Assembly: GCF_002097535.1 (NCBI RefSeq) | Contig: NZ_CP020772.1 | Location: 3,798,501 to 3,862,500, forward strand | Direction of reading: 5' to 3' | DNA from: Halobacillus mangrovi | GTDB lineage: Bacteria > Bacillota > Bacilli > Bacillales > Halobacillaceae | DNA length: 64,000 bases | Part shown: positions 8,468 through 53,463 of the stretch, one piece after another | Numbering within the stretch: the first letter of the stretch is position 1 | Layout: each line of letters begins with the position of its first letter | Notes under the pieces: model-generated | Told to the model about the DNA's origin: nothing | Databases searched by the model: none | Seen by the model: only the letters and a program-made list of their open reading frames with translations | Position numbers and translations under genes: made by a program

Positions 8468-8485
8468 TTACATCATGCCGCCCAT
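8468..8485. repeat. att core copy 1 (exact groEL 3'-end sequence)
   Basis: TTACATCATGCCGCCCAT matches the groEL stop and last codons (53446-53463) exactly; the identity runs two bases further (TC). Arm-type repeats flank it: CCAGTCA at 8408-8414 on the left and a pair at 8575-8581 and 8586-8592 on the right. The surrounding 8137-8718 region contains no gene. Confidence 0.85.
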
Positions 8486-8718
8486 TCACTCGGCTAATTA
8501 ATAGGAAAATATTAAGACCCACAGATCCTTATTATCTCAAGGTTTCCATTAGCAAATAAATTTATTAACAGTATCCAGTCATAATCCAGTCACTACGCAA
8601 CTAGATATTTCAAATTAAAAGAAATGGACCTTTAACCGTTGGAGCTAATGCATTTTTAAAATATTGGGTTCACAAACTAGAAGTAGTTGCTCACGTCTGG
8701 GGCTTTATCTTTTAATGG

Positions 8719-9117
8719 CTATTCTATCACTTTCCTATTCATCCGTTCCACCCATTGATGGAGAAGGTTATTATACCGGGTCAAATTTTTATGAATTTTA
8801 ATGGCCACTTCTTCATTATAGGTATGGACGGTCAAATTACGATCATTTACCATTTCCAAAGCCAGAACAGTCTCTTCATCCTCCAACAAGTGGACCTCCC
8901 TGCAACTGCGAATGACGCTCTTCGGAGAGCCGGCATCCACCCCTTCTATGTCATATAAATATTGCTTCGCCGCTTTCCAACTTGCCTCGAAAGAAAATTC
9001 AAATCGTTGAATCGCTGCATCTCGTTCCACATCATTCGGTTTTTTAAGGTTAGCTAGCTTTTCAAAGGCAGCCAACGCTTTTTCTGCTGCTTCTAATCGC
9101 TGGTGTAATCTCTCCAT
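8719..9117 (-). CDS. HEPN-like nucleotidyltransferase-associated protein (HI0074 family)
   Basis: 132 residues, all helical in pattern, with the HI0074-type layout (QRFEFSFEASWKAAKQYL, MVNDRNLTVHTYNE). Its start overlaps the end of the upstream MNT-type nucleotidyltransferase by 25 bp; the ribosome site AGGAGGGGATTTT precedes the ATG. HEPN/MNT pairs act as toxin-antitoxin modules, with the nucleotidyltransferase modifying the HEPN RNase. The typical Rx4-6H catalytic motif is only weakly represented here (RNLTVH), so toxicity is uncertain. Confidence 0.8.
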   Translation of the reverse strand: MERLHQRLEAAEKALAAFEKLANLKKPNDVERDAAIQRFEFSFEASWKAAKQYLYDIEGVDAGSPKSVIRSCREVHLLEDEETVLALEMVNDRNLTVHTYNEEVAIKIHKNLTRYNNLLHQWVERMNRKVIE

Positions 9118-9416
9118 AAAATCCCCTCCTCTTTCACTTGTTGGACTAGAGAGTCTTTAGCATCATGTAAATCCACCACATCTACCTTGTAAGGAATGGT
9201 AGACTCTTCAATTTGCTCGATTAGTTTATTCCATTTAAAAGGAGAGATTGGGGAGGCGGATTCGATAGCGAGGTCGATATCCGAACTATGTTTTTCTTCC
9301 TCTCGGGCCCAAGAACCAAATAAGTAAACGCGCGCTTTTTCCTTGCCGAGCTGTTCATTCAAAATTGATTTTAGTTGTTCTAAAACTTGCTCCCGTAAAT
9401 CTGCAGGACCTCCCAT
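9093..9416 (-). CDS. MNT-type minimal nucleotidyltransferase
   Basis: 107 residues with the nucleotidyltransferase signature LFGSWAREEEKHSSDIDLAI (GS motif followed by D-x-D) near residues 32-51. It is the probable antitoxin/modifier partner of the overlapping HEPN protein. ATG at 9416 follows AAGGGATATT. It is the first gene of a two-gene operon on the minus strand. Confidence 0.85.
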   Translation of the reverse strand: MGGPADLREQVLEQLKSILNEQLGKEKARVYLFGSWAREEEKHSSDIDLAIESASPISPFKWNKLIEQIEESTIPYKVDVVDLHDAKDSLVQQVKEEGILWRDYTSD

Positions 9417-9468
9417 AATATCCCTTCCTCTTTTTGTCCCATTATAGCATATGTAGATTTTCTCTATT

Positions 9469-9657
9469 ATGGATTTTCCTTCTCCACTTCCCCTATCAGA
9501 AATTGAATGGCTATCAGGTCCCTTATTAACAACACCAGAACCTAAATTTAGATTGCGCTATATTAAGGATAAGACCCCTAATCTGGAAGACTTGATTCCG
9601 AGATATCTTGAAGCAGATTTTAAACTAAAGCACCCCTTAGTTAAAAGGATTAAATAA
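9469..9657 (+). CDS. Small hypothetical protein, possibly a gene fragment
   Basis: 62 codons with no recognisable domain and no convincing ribosome site before the ATG. The C-terminal part (RYLEADFKLKHPLVKRIK) looks like the tail of a larger protein. It is 74 bp upstream of the DUF1569 gene on the same strand. A remnant is as likely as a real gene. Confidence 0.25.
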   Translation: MDFPSPLPLSEIEWLSGPLLTTPEPKFRLRYIKDKTPNLEDLIPRYLEADFKLKHPLVKRIK

Positions 9658-9731
9658 CGGTTGCATTGAATTATATATTAAATGATCAAGAGCATTTTTT
9701 GGTTAAAATAAAAAACTAAAGGAGTATTCTA

Positions 9732-50927: not shown

Positions 50928-51080
50928 ATGACACCTCCAATCCCTTTTGTACCACATAATAATGGATATTTATGAGGTAGTGGTGTTACAATATACATAT
51001 TAAACACCTATATAGTTAAGAGCAACCAAAAATACAACGTTTTAACCGTACTTTTACGCGGTACAAAAGTGAGGCTAAAA

Positions 51081-52166
51081 ATGAATTATCTACACTACCA
51101 ATATTGCTTATCGGATTTTATATTGACTGATGAGTATCAAATAGAAGATTTTAATAAAGTAACGAACCAAGCACTTACAAATTATTACCTAATTCTTTTA
51201 AAGAACATTAACAGCCATACAAATAACAATTATAAAAACCTAAATAGTTTGATCAGAAGAGTCCATGTGACTCCCGAGGAAATAACAAAGTATATAGATG
51301 AGGATAATAAACAGTCTTCTTATGATCCATTAATTGATACACCTGAGTTATATAGCGAGATGCATAAAATAAAATTTTTCAATGAGAAATCATTGAGGAG
51401 ATTTATCGATAACTATGGAATACCATTTCACATGTACTTCAATGAACAGGGGTATGTAGACTCCACTCTTTTCAAGAAAAACACCTCTGAAAAGTTTCTA
51501 GTAGAAATGGATGTATTTCTTTTCTATGAAAAATTAGTTGAATTTAAAAGTGCCTTCAAAATGTGGCATGACATATCGCAGGGTGAATTTGAAGAAATTA
51601 GAAAGATTAATGCAAGAATGAAGCTTGAAGTAGACTTCATCGCTCAAATCAGAAACCTTCATAAGGAAGAACTCACACTCGAAGAATTTGCTGATATTGT
51701 ACTTACTAACGCTGAATTAACAAATAAAGGAGGTGAAATAGAGGCTATTTTAGAAGATTACAAAAAACATCCAGACAAACTGATAAAACTTAATGAAAAA
51801 GCAACAGAAATTTCTGGTGTTTGGTCGAAAGTTAAAAGTGAATCTGAAAAGACAATAGCTCTCGCTTACTTAAATTTAAAGTTAAAAGAGCTTGATAGCG
51901 GAAGAACATCTACAAGATTTATTGATGGCAAAATCGTTCCAGCAATTAGTTTTAATAACCTAGTAGAAGTAGCATCCTACCAACTGAAACAGGCTATATT
52001 TAAAGAACAAAAATTTAAAGTGTGCTTAAATTGTGGCGATCTATTTGAACCTAGACATGCATCACAGAGGTTTTGCTCTCCGTTGCCTGGTAGGAAAAGA
52101 AGTACGTGTGAAAACACGTACAATCAACGTCAAAAAAGATTAAGAAAAAAACAAGGAGGGAGTTAA
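51081..52166 (+). CDS. Zinc-finger protein of unknown function upstream of the integrase
   Basis: 361 residues from the ATG at 51081 (GTGAGG upstream). Mostly helical, ending in a putative zinc site with CLNCGDLFEPRHASQRFC, a further Cys in RSTCENTYNQRQKR and a basic tail, which recalls CGNR-type zinc fingers. The integrase gene follows after 5 bp, so they share an mRNA. It occupies the position of the repressor or regulator gene in satellites; its role is not established. Confidence 0.6.
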   Translation: MNYLHYQYCLSDFILTDEYQIEDFNKVTNQALTNYYLILLKNINSHTNNNYKNLNSLIRRVHVTPEEITKYIDEDNKQSSYDPLIDTPELYSEMHKIKFFNEKSLRRFIDNYGIPFHMYFNEQGYVDSTLFKKNTSEKFLVEMDVFLFYEKLVEFKSAFKMWHDISQGEFEEIRKINARMKLEVDFIAQIRNLHKEELTLEEFADIVLTNAELTNKGGEIEAILEDYKKHPDKLIKLNEKATEISGVWSKVKSESEKTIALAYLNLKLKELDSGRTSTRFIDGKIVPAISFNNLVEVASYQLKQAIFKEQKFKVCLNCGDLFEPRHASQRFCSPLPGRKRSTCENTYNQRQKRLRKKQGGS

Positions 52167-52171
52167 TATTC

Positions 52172-53331
52172 ATGGCATATATTCGAAAAAGGAAAAATGG
52201 GAAATGGTCTTATACAGTTTCAGTAGGTATTGATCCATTAACAAAAAGACAAAAACAGAAAACTAAATCAGGATTTAATACCAGTAAAGAAGCTAAATCT
52301 GCTGCAAGGAAGTTGGAAGAGGAAATTGAGAAGGGAACATATGTAAATGAAAGTAGAATCAATTTCGAAGCATTTACTCAAGAATGGATAAAAGTATATG
52401 GTCAAAATGCTAAAACTAGTAGCGTAAGAGCTCGTAAAAAAGAAATGAATCATTTCATTTCAGTCTGGGGCCCATATTCATTGAACAAAATCACTAAACA
52501 AAACTACCATGAAGTCATAGTTAAATTAGCTGAAAAATATAGCCGAAACTATGTCAGTGGTATACATGCCTGTGGCAGAATGATATTTGCTTATGCAGTA
52601 GAAATAGGGATTTTGAAGTTGAACCCTACCGAAAATGTAAAATTACCTAAACCCAAAGTAAAAGTAGAGGATATTGAAAATCAAGATGAAGAAATAAAGT
52701 TTTTAGAAAAAGAAGAGCTTGCTAAATTTTTGCGCCTATCAGAGTCAGATGGGTTAGAAATGGACTCACTTATCTTTACAACTCTTTCTTATACCGGTTT
52801 ACGAATAGGAGAATTACTTGCACTCAAGTGGTCAGATTTCTCGCCTGAGAATAATTCCTTACGTGTCACCAAGACTATTTACAACCCTACAAATAATATA
52901 AAAGAGTATGAATTGTTAACACCAAAGACCTCAGGTTCAATCCGTTCCATACGAATAGATCGATCGTAAAAATGTTACAACGGCATCAAATGAAACAGAA
53001 GGAAATCAAATTCCAACAAGGACCATTATATAAAGATAATCTGTTTATCTTTGCACGAAATGACGGACATCCTCAATTAAGGAAAGTAGTCGAAACGCGC
53101 TTAAAGCGCTTATTAAAAAAAGCAGATATTAATAGGAATATCACACCTCATTCTTTCAGACATACACATACATCACTTCTTATTGAAGCGGGGGTAGGTA
53201 TTAAGGAAATTCAACAAAGGTTAGGTCATACAGACATTAACACTACGATGAACATTTATGCTCATATGACTGCAAACATGGAAGAAAAGGCCTCCCAACA
53301 GTTCAGCAAACTGATGAAAGGCCTTCTCTAA
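52172..53331 (+). pseudogene. int: Tyrosine recombinase (integrase), frameshifted
   Basis: The first frame (52172-52969) encodes an N-terminal arm-binding-like domain (MAYIRKRKNGKWSYTVSVG), a core-binding domain and the catalytic Arg in TGLRIGELLALKWSD. It stops at a TAA (52967-52969). The second frame (to 53331) carries HSFRHTH, LGHTD and the nucleophile Tyr in MNIYAHMT. The break lies in GATCGATCG at 52958-52966; adding one 4-bp unit would fuse the frames (I-D-R-S-I-V-K-M-L) to about 386 residues, the family's usual size. The gene points at the att core in groEL, 115 bp away. Confidence 0.88.
53287..53325 (-). terminator. Hairpin in integrase tail, likely substitute groESL terminator
   Basis: AAGGCCT (53287-53293) pairs with AGGCCTT (53319-53325), with CAGTT/AACTG pairing inside. 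On the minus strand it is followed by TTTTCTTCC. It lies 121 nt past the groEL stop and is the counterpart of the cassette-end terminators. Confidence 0.55.
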
Positions 53332-53445
53332 TAGGTAAAGCTTTATTTGAAAATGGCTCTTAAAAACTCTTCAATGAGCAAATATATGAGCATTTCCTCA
53401 CGATTCTCATAGAACCCCTTATATATCAGGCGTTAAGGAGGCAGA

Positions 53446-53463
53446 TTACATCATGCCGCCCAT
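53446..53463. repeat. att core copy 9 at the groEL 3' end (integration site)
   Basis: TTACATCATGCCGCCCAT is the reverse complement of the last groEL codons G-G-M-M-stop. The left arm pair is ATGAGCA 53374-53380 and 53386-53392, ending 54 bp from the core. Confidence 0.9.

What the first reader, a model, noticed from the sequence alone, without database searches (positions are those of the whole stretch)
8468..53463. Tandem array of nine groEL-derived att cores dividing 45 kb into integrase-less cassettes
Seen directly: an 18-bp sequence equal to the groEL 3' end (53446-53463) recurs at 8468, 11293, 18566, 23694, 25858, 33269, 39320 and 41364, exact in three and with 1-3 mismatches in the others, always between genes and in one orientation. 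Each interval holds one coherent functional unit (sugar uptake, HEPN/MNT, tct operon, germination receptor, gapN, maltodextrin operon, nuclease genes, ThrE pair, satellite). Only the groEL-proximal interval has an integrase gene. Known precedent: tandem accretion of islands and cis-mobilizable elements (CIMEs) at one att site. An array this long with mainly metabolic cargo is, to my knowledge, not described, and it recalls integron cassette arrays built by a phage-type integrase.
Basis: partly seen in the sequence, partly recalled or inferred. Interest (0 to 1): 0.95.

Follow-up and report, generated by a model that had tools for sequence, protein, structure and literature searches.

The report
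Mobile gene-cassette array at groEL
Next to the chaperone gene groEL, this Halobacillus-type bacterium and many of its relatives carry a row of gene cassettes, each ending in a copy of the last 18 letters of groEL and most of them lacking a recombination enzyme of their own, so they are likely moved by enzymes borrowed from neighbouring mobile elements, much as integrons collect genes.

Summary
Nine groEL-derived 18-mers lie at the stated places (0.09 expected by chance). The array continues left of the window: at least 11 cores, 10 cassettes, 60 kb. 24 of 44 genomes of the family hold three or more exact cores, against 3 of 115 from other families of the order.

Empty groEL sites exist (G003, G006); some arrays end at the native groEL terminator; G011 lacks exactly two cassettes of its sister G007. 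The same cassettes recur in other orders, 88-95% alike between genera whose groEL is 78-79% alike.

New here: 11 of 81 cassettes carry an integrase. The main integrase clades each have their own arm repeats beside the core, and integrase-less cassettes carry the same repeats (39 alpha, 10 beta). The commonest site class (39 sites) was never seen with an integrase (0 of 34 testable). Five integrase elements are conjugative. I infer that such enzymes move the cassettes in trans or in cis; excision was not observed. Tandem islands at one site, and islands at groEL, are known. I call this a new, integron-like variant.

The parts
8468..8485 (+). core 1 in window (exact); class A arm (alpha repeat CCAGTCA) at 8408-8467
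8468..11293 (.). cassette: HEPN/MNT-type pair (NTase_sub_bind 8719-9117, Polbeta 9093-9416) and DUF1569 (9732-10181)
   Evidence: the HEPN gene also lies between cores in G007, G015, G065, G067 and left of the first core of G019
11233..11310 (+). class D site (arm + core, 3 mismatches)
11293..18566 (.). cassette: tripartite tricarboxylate transporter TctABC, PrpF, biotin/lipoyl protein, LysR regulator
18506..18583 (+). class D site with two CCAGTCA repeats
18566..23694 (.). cassette: spore germination receptor GerA, GerAC, spore permease
23634..23711 (+). class D site (2 mismatches)
25798..25875 (+). class D site (1 mismatch; no exact CCAGTCA)
25858..33269 (.). cassette: maltodextrin-type operon (two permeases, binding protein, alpha-amylase, LacI); 7142 bp of it match, at 88.1%, the cassette second from groEL in G028
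33209..33286 (+). class F site (beta repeat GTATGTCA), core exact
33269..39320 (.). cassette: Mrr-type nuclease 36354-39080, DUF1643, unknown 331-aa protein (likely phage defence)
39320..39337 (+). core, 3 mismatches; left arm not classed
39320..41364 (.). cassette: ThrE/ThrE_2 exporter pair; the gene lies beside groEL in 13 of the 31 genomes fetched, in first, second or fourth place
41304..41381 (+). class E site, core exact
41364..53446 (.). groEL-proximal element: 1178-aa protein (phrog_18693), trypsin-like protease, DUF3987 primase/helicase-like, HTH/excisionase-like protein, integrase; satellite-like
52172..52969 (+). tyrosine integrase, N-terminal ORF (arm-binding domain, start of catalytic domain)
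52972..53331 (+). tyrosine integrase, C-terminal ORF in another frame
53386..53445 (+). left arm of the integrase element, degenerate repeat pair (my reading)
53446..53463 (+). attachment core = last 18 bp of groEL with its stop codon
53446..55080 (-). groEL, the target gene

Best explanation
The 18-mers are most likely attachment sites, and the 45 kb is part of an array of at least 60 kb of gene cassettes that were likely inserted one after another at the 3' end of groEL by tyrosine integrases. A typical cassette has a fixed layout: core, right arm, genes, terminator-like hairpin, arm repeats with 11-bp spacing, a short inverted repeat, and the next core. Shown by sequence: empty sites, array ends at the native groEL terminator, exact presence/absence of two cassettes, the same cassettes in other orders and another genus, arm repeats that go with integrase clades, and no integrase in most cassettes. 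Inferred: the integrases of conjugative elements and satellites that land on the same site recognise the arm repeats of integrase-less cassettes and cut and join them in trans, or carry them along in cis; groEL then acts like the attI site of an integron, because the incoming element rebuilds the end and stop codon of groEL.
For: Window: 9 cores against 0.09 expected; 11 in 60 kb. Empty sites G003, G006; native terminator at the far end in G007, G011, G001, and in G002 on a contig apart from groEL. G011 against G007: exactly 24.2 kb (two cassettes) absent, one core at the join. ThrE gene in 13 of 31 genomes at place 1, 2 or 4. Maltodextrin cassette 88.1% between G000 and G028, groEL 78.7%, right flank 74.3%. 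52 of 94 array matches of 1 kb or more exceed groEL identity by more than 5 points. 11 of 81 cassettes with integrase, 10 of the 11 next to groEL. Exact repeats: alpha at 4 integrase and 39 integrase-less units, beta 4 and 10, delta 2 and 0. Integrases of one clade are 88-99% identical and share one repeat. Second sample: beta repeats at the G022 integrase, gamma repeats at one G086 integrase. Five elements hold 20-21 of 21 backbone proteins, with MobL and T4SS coupling protein named in G015.
Against: No excision, circle or transfer was seen; there are no reads. The window's own integrase is split and its arm matches no repeat exactly. G007, G011 and G067 hold arrays but no integrase at groEL (PF00589 at 3, 4 and 3 places, all on other contigs). 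Alpha repeats sit 12 bp nearer the core in class D than in integrase elements. Only 25 of 272 match ends fall at cores in both genomes, and 24 of 94 array matches are less alike than groEL by more than 2 points: cassettes also change inside. In the second sample, of five full-length integrases beside a core two have an exact repeat, one a near match, two none (G058, G086). All 116 sites in the first 35 regions point one way, but seven of these regions lack groEL and were turned by their cores, and G030 has a full alpha site reversed 7 kb from groEL. The inverted repeat shows little covariation (30 of 1000 shuffles as good). The class D pattern is absent from viral contigs and the ThrE cassette from plasmids except distant gene matches.
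Confidence: 0.67

Rival explanations
1. Plain CIME accretion: the integrase-less units are decayed conjugative or satellite elements that lost their integrase and kept attL and attR, stacked by later insertions.
For: The published three-step model (PMC5704250, passages). Class A sites occur with integrase (4) and without (6); integrase elements lie nearest groEL in 10 of 11 cases, as in S. salivarius (PMC7563491, passages). Integrase fragments occur beside sites in G016 and G028.
Against: 69 of 70 integrase-less units hold none of the 21 proteins of the shared conjugative backbone. Class D, the commonest site, was never seen with an integrase (0 of 34); its cassettes have a median of 7 kb. Decay from other element types is not excluded.
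Confidence: 0.22
2. A dedicated class D integrase exists that is rare or encoded elsewhere and was not sampled.
For: Class D has its own arm spacing and mostly a TCAC core. Two class D cassettes (G024, G009) carry a 199-aa tyrosine recombinase near the core.
Against: That gene was not found in the other class D cassettes of the first 35 regions; G007 and G067 have at most one candidate each beside XerC/XerD-like genes. Class D carries the alpha repeats of a known clade.
Confidence: 0.15
3. Cassettes spread by natural transformation and homologous recombination between the conserved arms, not by an integrase.
For: Arms of about 100 bp are alike; many exchanges end inside cassettes.
Against: It does not explain empty sites and integrase-bearing elements with the same cores, nor matches ending at the core.
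Confidence: 0.06
4. Old syntenic chromosome with a chance or functional repeat.
For: None found.
Against: Empty sites, shuffled order and excess identity between genera.
Confidence: 0.01

Closest known systems
CIMEs and ICE/IME accretion (Streptococcus; PMC5704250, PMC7563491, passages)
   Same: Integrase-less units with att sites stacked at the 3' end of a gene, integrase elements next to the target gene.
   Different: There 33 composites of two and 4 of three elements in 75 genomes; here up to 10 cassettes in a row, a site class not seen with an integrase, arm repeats shared with integrase clades.
Dehalococcoides ssrA genomic islands (PMC3146451, section 5)
   Same: Many tandem islands within 100 kb of one gene, direct repeats of its 3' end, metabolic cargo, 16 of 31 with an integration module.
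   Different: Serine recombinase and tmRNA gene; a conserved motif beside the repeat is reported, but no sorting into classes in the section read.
groEL-targeting chromosomal islands (PICI) of staphylococci (PMC8125051, passages)
   Same: Same target: the last 18 bp of groEL overlap the att site, transfer shown there.
   Different: A single phage satellite with its own integrase.
Additive flexible genomic islands / tRNA repeats (PMC10872708, PMC5217437, passages)
   Same: Cassettes added or lost by site-directed recombination; repeats of a tRNA 3' end; metabolic cargo.
   Different: Other phyla and target; recombination sites not resolved into classes in the passages seen.
Integron cassette arrays (from knowledge)
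   Same: Cassettes behind a fixed site, standard cassette site, enzyme not in the cassettes.
   Different: No IntI, no attC; integrases are phage/ICE type with arm-binding domain; cassettes are often operon-sized.

Membership tests
CIME / tandem accretion | unit flanked by att sites of one specificity | tested here: met
CIME / tandem accretion | no integrase or conjugation genes | tested here: met
   70 of 81 units without groEL-type integrase; 69 of 70 without any of 21 ICE proteins; other conjugation families not searched
CIME / tandem accretion | derived from an ICE or IME by deletion | tested here: inconclusive
   class A fits; class D has no integrase-bearing form and no remnant of this ICE
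CIME / tandem accretion | cis-mobilisation by an ICE | not testable with these tools
   needs mating experiments
Integron | IntI integrase and attC hairpin sites | tested here: not met
   the window's integrase matches Arm-DNA-bind/phage integrase families; sites are core plus arm repeats; no attC search program was run
Integron | enzyme outside most cassettes, cassettes in one orientation at a fixed site | tested here: met
   11 of 81 with integrase; 116 sites of one orientation in 35 regions, one reversed site in G030
groEL-targeting tyrosine integrases | last 18 bp of groEL as att core, groEL restored | tested here: met
   groEL found in 37 of 37 genomes, 35 over all 544 residues, G025 over 18-544, G021 cut by a contig end
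ICE (helper elements) | integrase, relaxase, T4SS coupling protein, secretion ATPase | tested here: met
   MobL, T4SS-DNA_transf, TraG P-loop (weak, E 1e-5, below its cut-off) in G015; 20-21 of 21 proteins in G015, G017, G019, G034, G061
PICI (window element 41364-53446) | integrase, excisionase/regulator, primase, packaging interference genes | tested here: inconclusive
   integrase, HTH and primase-like found; packaging genes not named by Pfam or PHROGs

The most novel reading that the evidence does not exclude
groEL in the Halobacillus family is the entry site of a second, integron-like gene-capture system: standard integrase-free cassettes carry an address (arm repeat pair) that names the helper integrase clade which moves them, and conjugative elements and satellites that land on groEL supply the enzyme and the transport.
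Probability: 0.38. Interest if true: 0.88.

Novelty: new variant of a known kind. Interest (0 to 1): 0.74.

Why it matters
It shows operon-sized metabolic genes (maltodextrin use, amino-acid export) shared between genera as ready-made cassettes at one site, without integrons and without an enzyme in the cassette. The arm repeats give a readable address that links cassettes to integrase clades, so an old question, how integrase-less islands move, becomes a two-plasmid test.

Tried and rejected
Chance repeats: rejected. Conserved coding feature: no ORF of 100 aa or more spans the 81 cores tested. Hairpin with covariation like attC: not supported. Cassettes on phages or plasmids: nothing in viral contigs for the class D pattern; the ThrE cassette has four distant plasmid matches, none covering 80%; other cassettes were not tried. 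Decayed ICE as the source of all cassettes: not supported. Papers: ten searches; their listings show none on groEL arrays in Halobacillus or Bacillaceae; the library lacks most subscription journals. Loci L204-L208 and L215 were fetched but not analysed.
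Full report
1. The observation. The nine 18-mers are real and at the stated coordinates. Shuffled windows give 0.09 matches, at most 1. A genome-wide search with up to 3 mismatches gives 14 matches: 11 in the array and 3 elsewhere. 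Of those three, 204501 appears to lie inside a coding sequence (my reading of the sequence), 2613008 matches the site profile poorly (E 0.12), and 1781956 (minus strand) resembles a stray site (E 1.4e-7). Two of the array cores, at 3793119 and 3791857, lie left of the window. The array thus has at least 11 cores and 10 cassettes over 60 kb. Its far end was not found: genes shared with the left flank of G007 reach up to about 3775849.

2. Anatomy of a site. Left of the core are, in the commonest class and in order: a terminator-like hairpin (GAGAGGC type), repeats with 11-bp spacing, an inverted repeat (AAACCCT...AGGGTTT) and GGGCGCTA; to the right is a shorter conserved arm. The second core base is T or C, and in G001 and G030 the core next to groEL starts CTA. 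The stop codon of groEL is therefore TAA, TGA or TAG, depending on the element beside it (read). This suggests that the crossover lies within the core and that the element rebuilds the end of groEL.

3. Relatives. Contig lengths and junction sequences equate G007 and G011 with Halobacillus litoralis strains 22505_10_Sand and SL-4, G067 with Halobacillus sp. Marseille-P3879, G063 with H. massiliensis and G027 with Thalassobacillus devorans. groEL was found in 37 of 37 genomes, 35 of them over its whole length. In the family search 44 of 44 genomes have the exact 17-mer somewhere, 32 have two or more and 24 have three or more; the backwards control pattern has none. Among 120 order genomes I set aside 5 of the same family; of the other 115, 21 have two or more and 3 have three or more. 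37 of those 115 have no exact 17-mer at all, not even at groEL, so the fairer base is 78; it is still 3. Single islands at groEL also occur elsewhere in the order (looked at 14 genomes, 3 of this family and 11 of others); long arrays are a feature of this family.

4. Tests of presence and absence. I fetched stretches of 31 genomes: 21 of 22 of the genus (not G021, about 1000 contigs) and 10 others of the family, chosen mostly for having several cores. The stretches form 35 regions; those of G002, G009, G023, two of G065 and two of G066 do not reach groEL. In G003 and G006 the native terminator (GATGACGAGC...GCTCGTCATC type) follows groEL directly: empty sites. In G007, G011, G001 and G002 the same terminator ends the array on the far side. 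G011 has the ThrE and 7-kb cassettes of G007 joined at one core, where G007 has 24.2 kb (two cassettes) in between; the left end of its ThrE cassette differs. The ThrE gene lies in first, second or fourth place from groEL in 13 genomes; in G004, G013 and G014 no core was found to its left. 7142 bp of the window's maltodextrin cassette match the one second from groEL in G028. The gerA, gapN, TctA and Mrr genes of the window had no close counterpart at groEL in the other regions (best: 51% for gerA in G009). Across 94 array matches of at least 1 kb with known groEL identity, 52 are more alike than groEL by over 5 points and 24 are less alike by over 2. Matches end at a core in both genomes at 25 of 272 ends, where 1.2% of array sequence lies that near a core.

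5. Integrases. Of 81 units bounded by two cores, 11 carry a groEL-type tyrosine integrase (own profile, E below 1e-20). It is on the + strand, facing groEL, in all 11, and in 10 of 11 in the unit next to groEL. The genes of G000, G005 and G018 are split. Median length is 34 kb with integrase and 7.0 kb without. Two integrase-less units hold a weakly related recombinase (G002, G065). Five units share a conjugative backbone of 21 proteins with a MobL relaxase and a coupling protein, yet they carry integrases of three clades. In G007, G011 and G067 the whole genome has 3, 4 and 3 PF00589 matches, two in each XerC/XerD-like by length and score (my labels) and none at groEL.

6. Arm repeats. Clustering of the left arms gave a dominant class D: 39 sites, 34 testable units, none with an integrase. 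CCAGTCA lies within 160 bp left of the core in 37 of 39 class D sites, two copies in 18, where 0.025 per site is expected. The same repeat marks the sites of one integrase clade (G018, G019, G034, G061, and G066 by inspection). GTATGTCA marks a second clade (G005, G008, G015, G062) and all 11 class F sites, 10 of them testable and without integrase. GTGAGGTTT marks a third clade (G015, G017). TGTTAGCA was found at 5 sites, one of them testable and without integrase. The broken G018 integrase was not in the identity matrix. A second sample (16 regions of 14 genomes) held five full-length integrases beside a core: G022 with beta repeats, one of G086 with TGTTAGCA repeats, one of G058 with a near match, and one each of G058 and G086 with none of the four; an integrase fragment in G038 has TGTTAGCA, those in G049 and G144 have none. 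It added 5 class D sites (G022, G027, G033) without integrase in the stretch, and one more in G028. A class D pattern (one mismatch allowed) was found in 10 of 249 order genomes, five of them in this family (of 10 sampled); of the other five only G162 is exact.

7. Orientation. All 116 sites in the 35 regions point one way (one of them, in G011, was added by hand with 4 mismatches). The regions without groEL were turned by their cores. In G030, outside this set, a complete site with two alpha repeats lies reversed 7 kb from groEL, so the rule has an exception.

8. Mechanism. Shown: stacking at one site, exchange of cassettes between genera, absence of integrase from most cassettes, and shared arm repeats. 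Inferred: helper integrases act on the cassettes in trans, or co-transfer happens with a neighbouring conjugative element in cis. Not shown: excision, transfer, or which integrase acts on class D. Genes of integrase-less cassettes run with groEL in 390 of 507 cases, against 109 of 190 in the other flank; strand bias of Gram-positive chromosomes may explain part of this.

9. What is known. I read section 5 of PMC3146451 and passages of PMC5704250, PMC7563491, PMC10872708, PMC5217437 and PMC8125051. They cover tandem islands, CIMEs, additive islands and the groEL target. The combination of a standard integrase-free cassette site, arm repeats shared with integrase clades, and arrays of up to ten cassettes was not in what I saw. 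I file it as a new variant of tandem accretion that works like an integron.

Noticed in passing
G065:C1:4747024-4825278, 3079464-3120600 and 2984476: A genome with cores in several places: at groEL (2968463), 16 kb and 111-152 kb away, and a second array of six cores 1.8 Mb away from groEL. Not explained.
   Followed up: partly
L236 (G030:C3:24900): A complete att site with two alpha repeats, reversed, 7 kb from groEL; the only reversed one seen near groEL.
   Followed up: partly
L006 (G000:C1:1781956): A stray att site with a terminator-like flank as in class D, far from groEL and in the other orientation.
   Followed up: partly
G024 21633-22232 and G009 49662-50261 of the oriented regions: A 199-aa tyrosine recombinase in two class D cassettes, about 200 bp from the core.
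   Followed up: partly
G035:C3:13338-13874: A broken fragment of a second groEL (residues 359-537, 85%, one stop) 13 kb from the intact gene, between two cores.
   Followed up: no
window 46793-47437: Trypsin-like protease gene in the satellite-like element matches a candidate defence family (PDC-M35A, E 1.9e-82).
   Followed up: no
window 41563-45099: 1178-aa protein with only an uncharacterised phage family as relative in the libraries searched (phrog_18693).
   Followed up: no
G015:C1:1791533-1841173: 49.6-kb element at groEL with its own integrase clade that may be a prophage by gene order and sizes; not annotated.
   Followed up: no
L003:13373-16645: 1090-aa protein without Pfam or PADLOC match in the 13.8-kb sugar-uptake cassette left of the window.
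   Followed up: no
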